From Rhodocytophaga aerolata (GTDB taxonomy: Bacteria; Bacteroidota; Bacteroidia; Cytophagales; 172606-1): a stretch of DNA of 64,000 bases. A program made the position numbers and the translations under genes. The notes beneath the pieces are model-generated. The model saw nothing but the letters and a program-made list of their open reading frames with translations, was not told the origin of the DNA and made no database searches. Shown here one piece after another: positions 316 through 62,985 of the stretch. Numbering within the stretch: position 1 is the stretch's first letter; each line of letters opens with the position of its first letter. Where the stretch lies: the NCBI RefSeq assembly GCF_030503435.1, contig NZ_JAUKPO010000010.1:1-64000 (forward strand), read 5' to 3'.

Positions 316-555
316 GGCAGCAGTTTGTTTGAACAGATATTCACCTTTTTAGTGGTAAAGAAATACTAGATACAAGATATAAAATAACCGTTTTGCAAAC
401 TATTCCCCGATAAAAAATTAGCTAACCCATTATACAGGTGGTACTCCGCGGTTGCTATTACTTTTTCTAGGCTTTCCTGAAAATATTTTTATTGATTGCT
501 TGTAACTTTCTCTTGCTTGCTGCATTATGGTTCTGCAATTCACTAACAGCCATAC

Positions 556-1137
556 GTGTTAAAATTTCCGACATATCAGCCGAAGGTTTCCGATACAGTT
601 TCTGATAACGAATATCAGGAAATTGAAGAGGCCAAACGTGACCCTGAACGCTTCCGCGTGCTATATGAACGCTACTTTAAAATGATGTTTCTGTTTATCC
701 ACCGGAAAGTAGATGACAAAAACACCTCCGCCGATTTGGCTTCACAAGTATTTCTAAAAGCTCTGCTTCATTTGCCGGGCTATCAGCACCAGGGGTTGCC
801 CTTTTCTGCCTGGCTTTACCGGATTGCGATTAATGAAGTAATGCAGTTTTTCAGAAAAAATCAACGCATCCGCCAGGTGGTTATTGATGACTATATGCTC
901 AGCAGGCTGCGGGAAGAAACAGAAGAAGCCACGCTGGAAAACTTACAAAAGCAGCTATCTCAGGTAATAGAGCAGCTTTCTCTGGCAGAAGTACAACTGA
1001 TAGAACTGCGCTTCTATGAAAACAAATCTTTCAAAGAGATAGCCTATATACTGGAGATAAGCGAAAACACGGCCAAAGTACGTGCTTTCCGCCTGCTGGA
1101 GAAAATACGGGAGGCCATGCGTAAGCTAAACAACTAA
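556..1137 (+). CDS. ECF-type RNA polymerase sigma factor, first gene of a T9SS cargo cassette
   Basis: This 193-residue protein directs RNA polymerase to a small regulon. Sigma region 2 lies at about residues 33-100 (DLASQVF, then the WLYRIAINEV segment), and region 4 is a helix-turn-helix at about 135-187 (IAYILEISENTAKVRAFRLL). It lacks region 3, as ECF factors do. The start is GTG at 556-558; the nearest upstream ATG (527) is out of frame. The next gene begins 62 bp downstream and encodes a single-pass protein with a TonB C-terminal domain instead of a classical anti-sigma factor. The two genes after that encode a T9SS cargo and a PorP/SprF-like protein, so this factor probably controls that cassette; this is inferred from gene order only. 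The family call is secure, the regulon is not. Confidence 0.9.
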   Translation: MLKFPTYQPKVSDTVSDNEYQEIEEAKRDPERFRVLYERYFKMMFLFIHRKVDDKNTSADLASQVFLKALLHLPGYQHQGLPFSAWLYRIAINEVMQFFRKNQRIRQVVIDDYMLSRLREETEEATLENLQKQLSQVIEQLSLAEVQLIELRFYENKSFKEIAYILEISENTAKVRAFRLLEKIREAMRKLNN

Positions 1138-1199
1138 GCCTGCCAGAGGCTAAAGCTCCGTAATGCGCGGAAAATAAATGGATAAAGAACGCCACAAGT

Positions 1200-1946
1200 A
1201 TGAGATACAAAATTATGCAAAACCAGGATCCGGTGCCAGATGATGAGATACGCAGCTATCAATCGTTTGATAAACTGCTACGCCAGCACAAACAAGTTTT
1301 GTGGAAGAAGATGCTTTACCGGAAACTTGCGTATGGCACAGCAACGGTAAGTATCATAATTGCCAGCCTGGTGTATTATCTGCCTGACACGCCACAGCAG
1401 AAGCCAGTTAGTAGCTTGTCTCCAGCCGCCGTGCAGCCTAGCTCTAAACCTCAATTGCCCGGGCAAAAAACGGCTGCCGCTACCAGCACCCCGTCAACGG
1501 ATACACTTTCTCCCGGACCTGCCCGAACGCCGGTTACAACAGCACCTATAAAGAAAGATGTAGTAAACCCAACAGCCACCAAGAAGATTGCAGAAAAAAA
1601 AGAGGCAACCTTACAGCAGAAAGAGGCTGAAGGTTCTTTTGTAGCTGCCTCCCCTACCGGTGGCTATTACCAGCTGTTTGATTATTTTCAGCAATCGCTC
1701 CGGTATCCCCGGCAAGCCAGAGAAGATAGTATAACCGGAACAGTTATTATCGGATTTGCTATTAATGCAGAAGGGAAACCACAAGATTTACAAGTTATAA
1801 AAAGCGTTCATCCGGCATTAGACGAAGAAGCACTCCGGCTTGTCACAGAGATGCCAGGCTGGATACCTGCGTTGCTTAACGGGAAACCTATTACTACCCG
1901 ACAAACAGTTCCCTTAACTTTTCAACTGATCACTTCCCAAAAATAA
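1200..1946 (+). CDS. Single-pass membrane protein with TonB C-terminal domain
   Basis: The 248-residue protein has a basic cytoplasmic N-terminus of about 40 residues, one transmembrane helix at about 43-61, a Pro/Ser/Thr/Ala-rich periplasmic stretch to about 155, and a TonB C-terminal fold at about 158-245 (LRYPRQAREDSITGTVIIGF, VPLTFQL at the end). TonB domains transmit inner-membrane energy to outer-membrane proteins. No ExbB or ExbD gene is nearby. Its position directly after an ECF sigma gene is where an anti-sigma factor usually sits, so the cytoplasmic segment might bind the sigma factor; that is a hypothesis. ATG at 1200 is used; ATG at 1215 is an equally plausible start. It ends 7 bp before the next gene, so the two are very likely co-transcribed. 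Confidence 0.82.
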   Translation: MRYKIMQNQDPVPDDEIRSYQSFDKLLRQHKQVLWKKMLYRKLAYGTATVSIIIASLVYYLPDTPQQKPVSSLSPAAVQPSSKPQLPGQKTAAATSTPSTDTLSPGPARTPVTTAPIKKDVVNPTATKKIAEKKEATLQQKEAEGSFVAASPTGGYYQLFDYFQQSLRYPRQAREDSITGTVIIGFAINAEGKPQDLQVIKSVHPALDEEALRLVTEMPGWIPALLNGKPITTRQTVPLTFQLITSQK

Positions 1947-1953
1947 GAAGCCT

Positions 1954-3819
1954 ATGTACCGTTCAAGACTTTTGCTTGCTTGCTTAATCGTGCTCCTGGC
2001 TGGTTTAGTATTTTCTGTTCATGTATCCGGACAGGCATTTTCCAGGCTTTCTACTACTGGCTTACCTGCCCTTAGCCAGGCAAAATCAGTTTGGGCAAAT
2101 TTTGATACAACCAGCAGTAAACTGGAGGTTTTGCTGACCGGAAAAACGGTTGATGGAAAAGGCTTCGTTCAGGCTTATCAACTAGCCGATAGTGCTACCC
2201 GGCGCTTCATTCCTTTTGGCAATGAATTGGTTTCCCTTACCGAAGTTACTACAGCTGTACATGATTACAACCACGACAATCTGATAGACCTGCTTATTTC
2301 CGGCATCACCGACAATGGAACTCCGGTAACTAAACTTTTCGCTAATAAAAGCAGAGGGGTTTTTGAGGAAGTTTCCACCCCGCTGCCAGGATTACGCAAG
2401 GGACAAGTCAGGTGGGTTGACTTAGATAATGATGGATGGAAAGATATTATACTGAATGGTTTAACAGCACAAGACCAACCGCTAACTCAGATTTTCCGGT
2501 ATACGCCAAGTGGTTTTGTGTTACAGACCCACAATTTACCTGGCATGTCTGATGGAGTTCTACTGGATTTACAGCTAGATAATGATTCCCGCCCCGACTT
2601 GTTCATCAGTGGATTATCAGCTTCGGGAAACCCGTTTAGTGCTTTATACAGAAATTCAGGCAATTTTCAATTTGAATTACTCTCTCAGTCGATAGAAGCC
2701 TTATATAAGGGCAGTGCCGCTGCCGGTGATTTTAATGCAGATGGAAAAACAGACTTACTCCTAAGCGGACTGAATGCCTCTGACACCCCAGTTACTCAAC
2801 TGTATCTGCAAGATGGGGAGACTTTCACACCGGCAGGTTTTCCTATGCCAGGGATTTATCAAAGCTCTGTACACCTGGCTGAACTAACCAACGATGGGCT
2901 AACTGATATTCTGCTTGCCGGAATAGAAGCTAATGGAAACCCGGTAGCCCAATTGCTCCGCAATGGAGGAGATGGTAAGGCTTATGAACTACCAGCAGCT
3001 CTCGGTAATCTAACTACGCCTCATTTTAGTCTCGTAGATTTAACCAGTGATGGTAATTTAGAAATATTGCAAACAGGAAATGCAGGAACCAACCCGCAAA
3101 TTCATTACCTGTTTAATCTGGCAGCCAAGAAAAATCTTGGCCCGATGGCTCCCACCAACCCGCAGGTGAATAAAGTAGAAAACCAGACAATTTTTACCTG
3201 GTCGGCCTCAGCAGATGATTTTACTGCTGCTCCTGTACTAACCTATGAAGTATACATCTGGAGTGAAGATTCCAGATTGTACACAAAAACCTTGGAGATA
3301 AGTGGCACAGATAAACGGCGGAATGTGGTAACCCACGGCAGCCAGGGCCAGTTGACCACCTTCACAGTGTATGATTTACCAGAAGGCACCTATGAGTGGG
3401 GAATTCAATCTATAGACAATGCATTCGAAACCAGAGGAAAGAAAGGCATTTGCCGGGGAGGCAAGTTTACAGTAAAGCCAGATGGTGTTGTAACAGAGCC
3501 TGATCCTGAACCTGTTGCCCGAAAAGAGGTTTTTATACCAACGCTGTTTTCGCCCAACAGTGACGGAAAAAACGATGAATTTAAAGTATATGGTGAAGGA
3601 TTTGCAGAATTGCATCTGAGAATTTATGACAGATCTGGCGCCCTGCTTTTTGAGACACGCGACATACGTACGGCAACAAATAATGGGTGGGATGGTACTA
3701 ACAATGGCCGCCCTGTTCCTAATGGCACCTATTTCTGGTCGTTGAGTGGCAGCTATGCCGATGGTACGCAGGTACAATTCAACAGCAAGCAAAGCGGGGC
3801 TATCAACCTGATCCGGTAA
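1954..3819 (+). CDS. T9SS-exported surface protein: FG-GAP/VCBS-like repeats and gliding-motility C-terminal domain
   Basis: The 621-residue protein has a signal peptide (about 1-27, ending VSGQA). Six calcium-loop-like repeats of the FG-GAP/VCBS type follow between about residues 100 and 375; each carries a D-x-[ND]-x-[DN]-G-x-x-D-[IL] core, for example DLDNDGWKDI and DFNADGKTDL. A fibronectin/Ig-like segment lies at about 400-510. The last 95 residues form the gliding motility-associated C-terminal (type B CTD) domain, recognisable from FIPTLFSPNSDGKNDEF and the late GWDGTNNGRPVPNGTYFW. Type B CTDs direct export through the type IX secretion system and are typically paired with PorP/SprF-family proteins; one is encoded 42 bp downstream. 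The repeats suggest a beta-propeller that binds calcium and perhaps glycans. The ligand is unknown. Confidence 0.88.
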   Translation: MYRSRLLLACLIVLLAGLVFSVHVSGQAFSRLSTTGLPALSQAKSVWANFDTTSSKLEVLLTGKTVDGKGFVQAYQLADSATRRFIPFGNELVSLTEVTTAVHDYNHDNLIDLLISGITDNGTPVTKLFANKSRGVFEEVSTPLPGLRKGQVRWVDLDNDGWKDIILNGLTAQDQPLTQIFRYTPSGFVLQTHNLPGMSDGVLLDLQLDNDSRPDLFISGLSASGNPFSALYRNSGNFQFELLSQSIEALYKGSAAAGDFNADGKTDLLLSGLNASDTPVTQLYLQDGETFTPAGFPMPGIYQSSVHLAELTNDGLTDILLAGIEANGNPVAQLLRNGGDGKAYELPAALGNLTTPHFSLVDLTSDGNLEILQTGNAGTNPQIHYLFNLAAKKNLGPMAPTNPQVNKVENQTIFTWSASADDFTAAPVLTYEVYIWSEDSRLYTKTLEISGTDKRRNVVTHGSQGQLTTFTVYDLPEGTYEWGIQSIDNAFETRGKKGICRGGKFTVKPDGVVTEPDPEPVARKEVFIPTLFSPNSDGKNDEFKVYGEGFAELHLRIYDRSGALLFETRDIRTATNNGWDGTNNGRPVPNGTYFWSLSGSYADGTQVQFNSKQSGAINLIR

Positions 3820-3861
3820 GCCGCATATGTCCTATTTTTTCAAGCTACTCTTATTGCCTTT

Positions 3862-5469
3862 ATGACTATACAAAAGAGCCCGCCTTCAGTTAGTTTTTTC
3901 AGGTTACTCCGGGTAGGTAGTTTAAGTATACTTCTCTGCCTGATTACCCTTCCTTCCTTTGCACAGTACTTTCATTTTACACAATACCATTATACCCCTT
4001 TACGGCTAAATCCGGCACTGGTGGGTGCACAAAAAGAAGCACAGGCTCTTTTTCATTACCGGCAGCAGTCTACCAGCACCGACGTGCAATTCAGAACCTC
4101 TATGCTTACCGCGTCCTATCCGCTCTTGCAACGGGGAAGCGGCAGGCAATACGGCGGAGTTGGCCTTTCCGTATTAGATGACCGGACAGGGGCAGGTGGC
4201 TTATTTACGTTTCAAAGTATTGGGCTTAACGGGGCTTATAATGTAGCCTTACAGGCCAACCAGAGATTGGTGCTGGGCGTACAGGCAAATTATGCTTTAA
4301 AAGGAATTTCAACAGAAGGGTTTACTACAGGCAGCCAGTATGTATCGGGCCGAGGGTATGCCCCGGATGCCGATTTAGGTGAAAATTTTGATGCCTACCG
4401 GAGTCATTATTTTTCTCTGAGTACTGGTTTATATTGGTATGCATCTGATGCATATGATCAACGGAAAGCCTACGCAGGACTAACTTTATATGATGCCAAT
4501 CGGCCACAGGAATCGTTTATTTTACAGAGCAAGGTGCCAGCTTCGTTACTTGCCCATGCCGGGTACCGCATCCTGGATCAAAACTCGCTTAGCCTTACGC
4601 CAGAATTACTTTATTCCCTTAGTGCAGGCACTACTTACCTCAACCTGGGTGCATTGGCAAGTTATTACCTGGCCGACGACCGCACCAGCCACCTGGATGT
4701 TTCCGCGCATTATGTAATCGGACAAGCCGCAAACCTAGGCGTGCAATTTGTACAACCCAGCTATATTCTGGGATTCAGTTATGATCTGCCATTAAACCAA
4801 TCTACCACCAATACTTACCGGAGTGCTACTGAAATTCTGCTTGCTCTGAAAATGCCTGTGAAAGCTGGGGATAAAAGGAAGAAAAAGAAAAAGCGGAAGT
4901 CTAAAAAAACACCCAAAAAGAAAATTACAAAATCGCCGGTAGCGGCTAAGAAAACAACACCTGCTAGCCAGCTGCCTAAAACCAAACAACCGATAGAGAG
5001 TCAGGCACCGCCCAAAGTACCTACACCTGCTGATACACTTAGTACCAATCCGGCTACAGATCCTCCGGTAACGGCTAAGAAAGATACAACTCAGCAAAAA
5101 GGTCCGGAACTGAATGGATACCTGAGTTTTCTAAAAGAAGACAACGCAATTCAGTTTAAATTCAATAGTGAAGACCTGGACGAAAGCAGTTATCCTTACC
5201 TGGATCAGCTGGCAATATCCTTGCAGCAAAGCCCGGATTACCGGCTATTAATTATAGGACATACCGATGATACGGGCAGTGCTTCGTACAATCAATCTTT
5301 GTCCTTACGACGGGCACAACGGGTGGCAGATTATCTGGCAGAAAAAGGCATAAACCGCAGCCGTTTTACCATTAACGGAAAAGGTGAATCACAGCCTCTA
5401 GTACCCAACATAAATGACCAGCAACGGGCACTGAACCGGCGGGTAGAATTTACTCTATACCAGGAATAA
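3862..5469 (+). CDS. PorP/SprF-family outer membrane protein fused to an OmpA peptidoglycan-binding domain
   Basis: The 535-residue protein starts with a signal peptide ending at about residue 35 (SFAQYFHFTQY). A PorP/SprF barrel domain follows to about 320, opened by the typical PLRLNPALVGA motif. A very lysine-rich linker begins at about 334 (DKRKKKKKRKSKK) and continues as a Lys/Pro/Thr-rich stretch to about 410. An OmpA C-terminal domain lies at about 425-535 (IIGHTDDTG, SLRRAQRVADYL, NRRVEF). PorP/SprF proteins partner type B T9SS cargo at the outer membrane; the OmpA domain would tether this one to peptidoglycan. It is the last gene of the cassette and a hairpin follows at 5494. Ordinary SprF proteins are about 330 residues, so this fusion is unusually long. 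The domain calls are confident; the specific pairing is inferred from adjacency. Confidence 0.88.
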   Translation: MTIQKSPPSVSFFRLLRVGSLSILLCLITLPSFAQYFHFTQYHYTPLRLNPALVGAQKEAQALFHYRQQSTSTDVQFRTSMLTASYPLLQRGSGRQYGGVGLSVLDDRTGAGGLFTFQSIGLNGAYNVALQANQRLVLGVQANYALKGISTEGFTTGSQYVSGRGYAPDADLGENFDAYRSHYFSLSTGLYWYASDAYDQRKAYAGLTLYDANRPQESFILQSKVPASLLAHAGYRILDQNSLSLTPELLYSLSAGTTYLNLGALASYYLADDRTSHLDVSAHYVIGQAANLGVQFVQPSYILGFSYDLPLNQSTTNTYRSATEILLALKMPVKAGDKRKKKKKRKSKKTPKKKITKSPVAAKKTTPASQLPKTKQPIESQAPPKVPTPADTLSTNPATDPPVTAKKDTTQQKGPELNGYLSFLKEDNAIQFKFNSEDLDESSYPYLDQLAISLQQSPDYRLLIIGHTDDTGSASYNQSLSLRRAQRVADYLAEKGINRSRFTINGKGESQPLVPNINDQQRALNRRVEFTLYQE

Positions 5470-5493
5470 ATGTATTTTCTGAAACATGCAAAC

Positions 5494-5529
5494 TAACCAT
5501 TAACATAAAATGAATTCTGTTAATGGTTA
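5494..5529. terminator. Hairpin ending the sigma-TonB-cargo-PorP cassette
   Basis: TAACCATTAACA (5494-5505) and TGTTAATGGTTA (5518-5529) form a perfect 12-bp AT-rich stem with a 12-nt loop, 25 bp after the PorP-OmpA stop codon. The next gene is convergent, so it may work in both directions. Confidence 0.6.
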
Positions 5530-53033: not shown

Positions 53034-53061
53034 GTTAGATGGTTTTTTTCTTCCAGCGTTT
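53034..53061 (-). promoter_or_regulatory. ECF-type promoter before the anti-sigma gene
   Basis: On the minus strand AAACG (53061-53057) and TCTAA (53039-53035) are separated by 17 nt. The 30-nt block ending in AAACCATCTAA matches the block before the sigma gene in the same register, with the same spacing. The -35 box overlaps the sigma stop codon. Confidence 0.6.
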
Positions 53062-53623
53062 AATTTTTATTCAAAAAATCTTCAATTTTTTTTACGGCCA
53101 GGTGGTACGATGACTTTAAAGCCCCTACCGATGTACCAACAATGGCTGATATTTCTTCATAGGTTAACTCATCAAAATATTTCATATTAAATACCAGCCG
53201 TTGTTTAGTGGGTAGTTGTAATAAGGCTTTTTGCAACTTCAGTTGAATTTCGTCTCCGGTAATCAGATTGCCGCTTTGCAGTTTGTCTAACAGCTCCGCC
53301 TTTACATCCACAATCGGCAGGAAAAATCGGCGTTTCTTCTTATCCAGAAAACTCAGGCATTCGTTGGTAGCAATGCGGTATAGCCAGGTGTATAGCTGCG
53401 AATCTCCCTTAAAACTGTGAAGATTTTTCCAGACTTTTATAAAAGTTTCCTGAGTAAGATCATCCGCATCCTCATGATCAATAACCATTTTGCGGATGTG
53501 CCAATAGATTTTCTGCTGGTATTTTCGTACCAGTTCATTGAAAGCAGCCTGTTGGGTATCCGGCTGCCGGAACCTGTCGAGAAGCTCTTTGTCTTCCAAC
53601 TGTGTCTGCGTGGTGCTCACCAT
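53060..53623 (-). CDS. ECF RNA polymerase sigma factor, first gene of an envelope-stress operon
   Basis: The 187-residue sigma factor has region 2 at about 25-95 (DHEDADDLTQETFIKVWKNL, LYTWLYRIATNE) and region 4 at about 130-180 (LVFNMKYFDELTYEEISAIVGTSVGALKSSYHLAVKKI). Its own ATG at 53623 lies only about 7 bp after the TCTAA box, so the mRNA may be leaderless. The anti-sigma and Spy-like genes follow. The shared promoter sequence at 53630-53656 suggests that the factor drives its own operon. Confidence 0.93.
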   Translation of the reverse strand: MVSTTQTQLEDKELLDRFRQPDTQQAAFNELVRKYQQKIYWHIRKMVIDHEDADDLTQETFIKVWKNLHSFKGDSQLYTWLYRIATNECLSFLDKKKRRFFLPIVDVKAELLDKLQSGNLITGDEIQLKLQKALLQLPTKQRLVFNMKYFDELTYEEISAIVGTSVGALKSSYHLAVKKIEDFLNKN

Positions 53624-62436: not shown

Positions 62437-62985
62437 TTATTTGAAGAATTCTCTTAAATGATTGATGGCAGATTTGACCCTGGTTTTTACCGTTCCCAAT
62501 GGAATATTTAACTCTTCGGCGACTTCTGCCTGGGTAAATCCTTTGAAATATATATAATCTATAATAATCTTTTGTTCCGGCTTCAGGGTGTCTACGACCT
62601 TATCTAACCCTATATGATCTACGGCTGATTGTGTTTGTGACTGGCCATCCATCATACTTACGTGATTATCCAATGACTGGATTTTGTTTGTATGCTTATA
62701 ACTTTGTGACCGTAATCTGTCAATGGCGGTGTTGCGGCATACGTTCAATAACCATGTAAACAAAGTGCCTTTGGAAGCATCATAGGCATCAATATTTTTC
62801 CAGATCTTGACAAATGCATCTTGTAATACGTCTTCTGCTAATGATTCTGAATGGACAATTTTGAGCACAATACCATACAGCACCCTGGAATAGTTGTCAT
62901 ACAACAATTCAAACCCCTTCTTGTCTTTGTTTTTTAACAAACCAACAAGTTCTTTTTCAGTAATGGTAGACAGCGTTTTGTACAA
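62437..62985 (-). CDS. ECF RNA polymerase sigma factor
   Basis: The 182-residue factor has region 2 at about 25-95 (ESLAEDVLQDAFVKIWKNIDAY, TLFTWLLNVCRNTAIDRLRS) and region 4 at about 130-178 (IDYIYFKGFTQAEVAEELNIPLGTVKTRVKSAINHLREFF). The start codon appears to be TTG at 62985; no ATG precedes region 2 in frame before a stop. It forms a two-gene unit with the RskA-type anti-sigma factor. Confidence 0.92.
   Translation of the reverse strand: MYKTLSTITEKELVGLLKNKDKKGFELLYDNYSRVLYGIVLKIVHSESLAEDVLQDAFVKIWKNIDAYDASKGTLFTWLLNVCRNTAIDRLRSQSYKHTNKIQSLDNHVSMMDGQSQTQSAVDHIGLDKVVDTLKPEQKIIIDYIYFKGFTQAEVAEELNIPLGTVKTRVKSAINHLREFFK

What the first reader, a model, noticed from the sequence alone, without database searches (positions are those of the whole stretch)
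556..5529. Compact cassette: ECF sigma factor, TonB-domain protein, T9SS cargo and its PorP/SprF-OmpA partner
Seen: four co-oriented genes with gaps of 62, 7 and 42 bp, closed by a 12-bp hairpin. Known: type B CTD cargo of the type IX secretion system is often paired with a PorP/SprF protein, as for SprB and SprF. Inference: one sigma factor may switch on a single surface protein together with its own anchor, and the TonB-like protein may report export status to the sigma factor. A dedicated sigma-to-cargo circuit of this type would be an interesting unit.
Basis: partly seen in the sequence, partly recalled or inferred. Interest (0 to 1): 0.7.

Follow-up and report, generated by a model that had tools for sequence, protein, structure and literature searches.

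The report
Self-regulating operon for one surface protein
A four-gene bacterial operon carries its own transcription switch, a membrane protein that probably holds that switch off, one exported surface protein and that protein's outer-membrane anchor; the same set recurs in 14 other genomes, which suggests a private circuit for displaying a single surface protein.

Summary
In detail: four co-oriented genes (gaps 62, 7, 42 bp) and a 12-bp hairpin, encoding an ECF sigma factor, a one-TM protein ending in a TonB CTD, an FG-GAP protein with a T9SS type B signal, and a PorP/SprF-OmpA fusion. It is a real module: the same order recurs in 15 of 390 genomes of the order (five family codes), often with 4-bp overlaps, though in none of the 7 other genomes of its own family. 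Three findings go further. (1) The TonB-like protein starts with an unannotated ~45-residue domain plus TM that lies directly behind this sigma subfamily almost everywhere (76 of 83 hits) with varying periplasmic parts; with a confident AlphaFold model resembling inhibited CnrH/SigW, it is a likely class II-like anti-sigma factor. (2) A promoter, TGTATCTTTT-N9/10-TGCATTATA, precedes the sigma gene (501-529); the two best sites found in the 9-Mb genome head this operon and its sigma paralogue. (3) The OmpA fusion keeps peptidoglycan-binding motifs and lacks SprF's twin cysteines, predicting a static anchor. Best reading: an autoregulated single-operon sigma/anti-sigma circuit for one T9SS surface protein. 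What TonB_C senses is untested.

The parts
501..529 (+). ECF promoter: -35-like TGTAACTTTC (501-510), 10-nt spacer, -10-like TGCATTATG (521-529)
   Evidence: Shared motif before the sigma genes of the subfamily: 46 of 54 representatives exceed the 95% shuffle level, 43 of 54 leave-one-out; window leave-one-out 24.3 bits against a shuffle maximum of 15.5. Best site in the window by 10 bits.
556..1137 (+). ECF sigma factor, 193 aa, GTG start
   Evidence: PF04542, PF08281, TIGR02937 over cut-off; subfamily bounded in 69 of 390 genomes.
1200..1946 (+). TonB-like protein, 248 aa: putative anti-sigma factor with TonB_C sensor
1200..1325 (+). NT domain (aa 1-42), cytosolic, conserved behind this sigma subfamily
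   Evidence: Profile search: 83 hits in 390 genomes, 76 directly behind a top sigma hit; no Pfam family.
1326..1382 (+). Transmembrane helix (aa 43-61), without the histidine of energy-coupling TonB
   Evidence: Hydropathy and His check in 13 cassettes; helix 23-60 in the model.
1698..1928 (+). Periplasmic TonB_C domain (aa 167-243) behind a disordered linker
   Evidence: PF03544 E=1.3e-17; pLDDT 91-97; PDB match 6i97_D, TonB CTD with FoxA.
1954..3819 (+). T9SS cargo, 621 aa: FG-GAP repeats, then type B C-terminal domain (aa 528-599, 3535-3750)
   Evidence: PF13517, PF13585, TIGR04131 over cut-off.
3862..5469 (+). PorP/SprF barrel (aa 34-327) fused to OmpA peptidoglycan-binding domain (aa 432-526)
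   Evidence: PF11751, TIGR03519, PF00691; GHTD / NRRVE motifs kept, no CxC.
5494..5529 (+). 12-bp perfect hairpin downstream of the operon; possible transcript end

Best explanation
A self-contained sigma/anti-sigma switch that controls display of one surface protein. (Strongly suggested by sequence) The sigma factor reads a family-specific promoter at 501-529 and transcribes its own operon. (Strongly suggested) The TonB-like protein is its anti-sigma factor: a short cytosolic domain wraps the sigma factor at the inner membrane, in the manner of CnrY. (Inferred) Its periplasmic TonB_C domain, on a disordered linker, reaches the outer membrane and reads the state of an outer-membrane partner, most plausibly the operon's own PorP-OmpA barrel with or without cargo; the signal frees the sigma factor, perhaps by intramembrane proteolysis. 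(Inferred from known families) The cargo crosses the outer membrane through the T9SS, is collected by its own PorP/SprF barrel, and is held statically because the barrel carries a peptidoglycan-binding OmpA domain.
For: Same quartet in 15 of 390 genomes, often with -4 overlaps. Cassette parts co-vary: Mantel r 0.31-0.82, all p<0.01. NT domain searched without reference to sigma: 83 hits, 76 directly behind a top sigma hit; C-termini vary (27 mini, 11 mini plus separate TonB_C gene, 9 other, 30 TonB_C fused, including all 14 cassettes counted). Sigma and NT distances correlate, r=0.52, p=0.0005. AlphaFold2 of a natural in-frame sigma-stop-NT reading in cassette locus L158: pTM 0.80, NT helices pLDDT 93-96 against 72-84 for the window protein without sigma; its sigma part is closest to anti-sigma-bound CnrH (4cxf, TM 0.73) and SigW (0.70-0.72), against 0.34-0.43 for RNAP-bound ECFs. 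Promoter; in 7 cassette genomes the cassette promoter is the only exact core match. Type B cargo/PorP pairing and static anchoring by PorP-PorE: PMC12618676, PMC9143113.
Against: No transcript, binding or mutant data. NT matches no known anti-sigma family by sequence. The AlphaFold model links two proteins artificially, has 8 rows covering NT, includes the TM helix and has no sigma-alone control. No evidence ties TonB_C to PorP-OmpA; TonB_C partners also occur without cargo (16 fused loci outside cassettes). A pattern search would miss diverged target promoters. The cassette is patchy and absent from close relatives.
Confidence: 0.62

Rival explanations
1. Same sigma/anti-sigma operon, but TonB_C reads a TonB-dependent receptor encoded elsewhere (as TonB CTDs bind TonB boxes); cargo and anchor are only the output, and nothing senses export.
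For: The fold matches TonB CTDs bound to transporters (FoxA, BtuB, FhuA). TonB_C-type partners occur without the cargo genes, including the own-genome paralogue.
Against: All cassettes have the fused TonB_C type, against 16 of 63 other loci (not phylogenetically independent); no receptor gene is part of the conserved cassette.
Confidence: 0.25
2. The TonB-like protein is a TonB-type energy transducer that powers or positions the PorP-OmpA barrel; the sigma gene only co-regulates it.
For: True TonB_C fold; in 11 related loci a separate TonB_C gene follows the NT protein, some with an N-terminus like ordinary Bacteroidota TonB (the resemblance is from memory).
Against: No histidine in the TM of any of 13 cassette proteins; the N-terminus is the sigma-linked NT domain shared with proteins that have no TonB_C; no ExbB/ExbD genes in the cassette.
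Confidence: 0.06
3. The NT protein is an activator or a chaperone of the sigma factor (as FecR's N-terminus is needed for FecI activity), so the switch has the opposite sign.
For: FecR precedent (59 N-terminal residues needed for sigma activity, cited in PMC7406223). NT has no sequence link to known inhibitors.
Against: The modelled sigma is in the closed, anti-sigma-bound arrangement, not the RNAP-bound one.
Confidence: 0.12
4. Chance neighbours, or an ordinary operon whose sigma factor has a broad regulon.
For: The window's own family lacks the sigma gene.
Against: Order kept in 15 genomes with overlapping genes; the promoter core is unique or nearly so in each genome.
Confidence: 0.04

Closest known systems
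FecI-FecR-FecA cell-surface signalling
   Same: ECF sigma, single-pass inner-membrane regulator and an outer-membrane barrel in one circuit.
   Different: No FecR domain and no TonB-dependent receptor in the cassette; the barrel is a T9SS shuttle, the output an exported surface protein, and TonB_C sits on the regulator itself.
CnrH-CnrY (class II anti-sigma factors)
   Same: Short (<50 aa) helical cytosolic domain plus one TM; model places sigma in the CnrH-like closed form.
   Different: No detectable sequence similarity; the periplasmic part is TonB_C here, not a metal-sensing partner.
SprB-SprF / PG1035-PorP-PorE type B cargo with PorP-like shuttle
   Same: Type B CTD gene directly followed by a PorP/SprF gene; OmpA-type wall anchor as in PorE.
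   Different: OmpA is fused to the barrel; no SprF twin cysteines; the operon carries its own sigma factor and partner.
P. gingivalis PorXY-SigP with PorA
   Same: An ECF sigma factor tied to the T9SS, with a surface CTD protein feeding back on it (PMC7712824).
   Different: SigP is activated by a two-component system and controls the T9SS machinery, not one cargo with its shuttle.

Membership tests
ECF sigma factors | Regions 2 and 4 only; sigma70-ECF model | tested here: met
   PF04542, PF08281; TIGR02937 71.9 bits over 42.9.
BldN-type ECF (TIGR02952) | Score above the equivalog cut-off | tested here: not met
   Best-scoring model, 106.6 bits, but cut-off 206.45.
FecI/FecR systems | FecR domain on the partner; receptor gene alongside | tested here: not met
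   Only TonB_C found on the partner; no receptor in the cassette; Bacteroidetes FecI-like model TIGR02985 69.3 bits under cut-off 126.4.
Class I anti-sigma (ASDI, zf-HC2 type) | Recognisable ASDI / zinc-finger domain | tested here: not met
   No Pfam match for the window NT domain and none meaningful for 26 NT domains.
Class II anti-sigma (CnrY-like) | Domain under ~50 aa whose helices wrap sigma2 and sigma4 | tested here: inconclusive
   Length and helices fit; confident model with CnrH-like sigma, but no sequence homology and contacts not inspected.
Any anti-sigma factor | Inhibits its sigma factor | not testable with these tools
   Needs deletion or binding assay.
TonB energy transducers | TM with the ExbB/D-coupling histidine | tested here: not met
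   No His in the TM of 13 cassette proteins.
TonB energy transducers | TonB_C fold | tested here: met
   PF03544; PDB TonB CTDs.
T9SS type B cargo | TIGR04131 C-terminal domain above cut-off | tested here: met
   50.2 over 35 bits.
PorP/SprF shuttle proteins | TIGR03519 above cut-off, encoded directly after a type B cargo | tested here: met
   155 over 90.55 bits; 42-bp gap.
SprF-type mobile gliding shuttle | Cys-X-Cys tail that links to GldK | tested here: not met
   The window protein has a single Cys, at residue 26 in the signal-peptide region; none of 13 cassette homologues has a CxC in its C-terminal part (motif from PMC12635249).

The most novel reading that the evidence does not exclude
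An undescribed anti-sigma domain family with interchangeable periplasmic sensor parts serves one ECF subfamily; its TonB_C form makes a secretion-coupled surface-signalling circuit in which the loading state of a T9SS shuttle (PorP-OmpA) is read through the periplasm and fed back to the one operon that makes cargo and shuttle.
Probability: 0.33. Interest if true: 0.82.

Novelty: new variant of a known kind. Interest (0 to 1): 0.64.

Why it matters
Only about 6% of Bacteroidetes ECF sigma factors have a recognisable class I anti-sigma neighbour (PMC7406223). This finding supplies a candidate anti-sigma family for one such subfamily, with its promoter motif. It is also the only example I found of a type B T9SS cargo and its shuttle under a private sigma factor, so the question whether cells sense the secretion or loading of a single surface protein becomes testable with one promoter reporter and four deletions.

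Tried and rejected
Direct search for related loci with the sigma protein found only two unrelated loci; whole-genome searches worked instead. The closest relatives (same genus and family) were tested first and lack the sigma gene; only cargo/PorP-OmpA pairs occur there. TonB as energy transducer: rejected (no TM His). SprF-type mobile adhesin carrier: rejected (no twin Cys). NT against PDB sequences and Pfam: nothing meaningful. Recent foreign DNA by composition: GC of the cassette (0.44-0.47) does not stand out. Single origin of the cassette on the sigma tree: clustered (5 changes, 13.4 in shuffles) but not one clade. Literature searches for an anti-sigma factor with TonB_C, or a sigma factor tied to a type B cargo, found nothing.

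Full report
Observation. The four ORFs, their spacing and the hairpin are as described. Domain models confirm an ECF sigma factor, a TonB_C protein, an FG-GAP protein with a T9SS type B C-terminal domain, and a PorP/SprF barrel fused to OmpA. The genome has the T9SS translocon gene sprA.

Is the neighbourhood conserved? The sigma subfamily is sharply bounded: at E<=1e-22 it occurs in 69 of 390 genomes of the order (91 genes; weakest listed hit 8e-34) and almost only in that order (7 of 395 in a phylum-wide draw, five of them from the order). I fetched 80 of these loci and the G368 locus later. The order sigma, TonB_C protein, CTD cargo, PorP+OmpA is present in 12 loci besides the window; two more turned up through the PorP-OmpA search (L140/G074 and L254/G368), making 15, and truncated contigs look like pieces of others (L139/L261, L255). 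Family codes are f1, f8, f18, f19 and f20. Genes mostly overlap by 4 bp or lie within about 10 bp. Distances of sigma, NT, TonB_C, CTD, PorP and OmpA parts correlate, as expected of a unit inherited together. The seven other genomes of the window's family lack the sigma gene; the nearest sigma relatives are in other families (55-57% identity). So the unit is patchy, by transfer or loss; composition does not decide which. On the sigma tree cassettes cluster but do not form one supported clade. Control: PorP-OmpA homologues without this sigma sit behind much larger CTD proteins (about 1,060-3,060 aa), with no sigma or NT partner gene found in the stretches fetched.

The TonB-like protein. Reading the gene after the sigma gene in all loci showed the same N-terminus nearly everywhere, whatever follows it: about 45 residues with the motif PSDEEI-x3-KNFD-x-LL-x2-Y, then one TM. 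Of 4,202 ORFs in the loci, 77 match its profile, nearly all within 300 bases of the sigma stop or overlapping it; the profile was seeded from such genes, so the independent test is the next one. A genome-wide search with this domain alone gave 83 hits, 76 directly behind a top sigma hit; two of the other seven lie beside a weaker sigma-like ORF. The C-terminal part varies: none (27), none but a separate TonB_C gene next door (11), other (9; L165 has a cytochrome c domain), or fused TonB_C (30, including all 14 cassettes counted). A constant sigma-adjacent cytosolic domain with swapped periplasmic parts is what an anti-sigma family looks like. An unrelated case of the same design exists in the window's family: proteins with an N-terminal zf-HC2 (anti-sigma type), CarboxypepD_reg and a terminal TonB_C beside another ECF gene.

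Structure. AlphaFold2 gives the window protein helices 14-21 and 23-60, a disordered stretch 64-142, and a TonB CTD at pLDDT 91-97, matching TonB CTDs bound to FoxA, BtuB and FhuA. In cassette locus L158 the sigma and partner genes are in frame; reading the stop codon as a residue gave a natural sigma-NT chain, predicted at pTM 0.80 with NT helices at 93-96. Its sigma part is closest to sigma factors held by wrap-around anti-sigmas (CnrH-CnrY 0.73, SigW-RsiW 0.70-0.72) and far from RNAP-bound ECFs (0.34-0.43). This is supportive, not decisive: the linkage is artificial, the alignment shallow, contacts could not be inspected, and there is no sigma-alone control.

Promoter. Upstream regions share TGTATCTTTT, 9-10 nt, TGCATTATA. 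46 of 54 representatives exceed the 95% shuffle level, 43 of 54 leave-one-out; the window site scores 24.3 leave-one-out against a shuffle maximum of 15.5. In the window it is the best site by 10 bits. In the 9-Mb genome the two best of the re-scored pattern matches are those before this sigma gene and before its paralogue at C11:171.8 kb; the pattern's ambiguous bases were chosen to admit the window, so its zero mismatches are not independent, but the paralogue's rank is informative. In the 15 cassette genomes an exact core has 23 matches, 12 of them the cassette promoter, against 7 for the reversed control; in seven genomes the cassette promoter is the only match. This argues for autoregulation and a very small regulon; diverged targets would be missed.

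Output. Most cargos inspected carry FG-GAP repeats and the type B CTD; one (L190) has an M43 peptidase instead, so the payload can change while the export signal stays. The PorP-OmpA protein keeps peptidoglycan-binding motifs and lacks SprF's twin cysteines. In F. johnsoniae type B substrates need cognate PorP/SprF shuttles and those with PorE-like partners are thought static (PMC12618676, PMC9143113), while SprF's Cys-X-Cys ties it to the gliding track (PMC12635249). A static anchor is therefore predicted.

What remains inference. That NT inhibits rather than activates; what TonB_C contacts; and how release happens. My leading guess, that it reads the operon's own PorP-OmpA, rests on all cassettes having the fused TonB_C form (against 16 of 63 other loci) and on function, not on any contact evidence.

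Known or new. Each part belongs to a known kind. The combination, a private ECF sigma / putative class II-like anti-sigma pair heading a type B cargo and a PorP-OmpA fusion, was not found in the papers searched (open-access subset only), and the NT domain has no family in Pfam. I file it as a new variant of a known kind.

Noticed in passing
L009:5800-7993 (own genome C11:171.8 kb): Paralogous pair: a sigma factor 40% identical plus a 559-aa protein with the NT domain, a TM and an internal TonB_C, with its own copy of the promoter and no T9SS cargo.
   Followed up: partly
L091:6558-8514; similar in L092, L093, L095, L107: ECF sigma followed by a protein with CarboxypepD_reg and a C-terminal TonB_C, with a zf-HC2 N-terminus supported by Pfam in L091-L093; present in several genomes of the window's family.
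   Followed up: partly
L165:10967-12823 (and its relative L169): The sigma-linked NT domain and TM are followed by a region with a cytochrome c domain, which suggests a redox-sensing version.
   Followed up: no
L188, L193, L195, L199-L202, L204, L208, L172, L174: Sigma, an ~80-110-aa NT-TM protein and a separate TonB_C protein in adjacent genes: a split form of the fused cassette partner.
   Followed up: partly
L190:5021-7624: One cassette's cargo carries an M43 metallopeptidase and a PKD domain instead of FG-GAP repeats.
   Followed up: no
L256-L260, L262-L264, L269: PorP-OmpA fusions without the sigma gene sit behind very large type B CTD proteins (up to about 3,060 aa).
   Followed up: partly
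window 53060-53623 (-) and 62437-62985 (-): Two further ECF sigma genes of other subfamilies (25% and 18% identity to this one) lie in the same window.
   Followed up: no
G000:C111:213722-215647: Three TonB_C matches in tandem open frames of about 230-250 aa in the window's genome.
   Followed up: no
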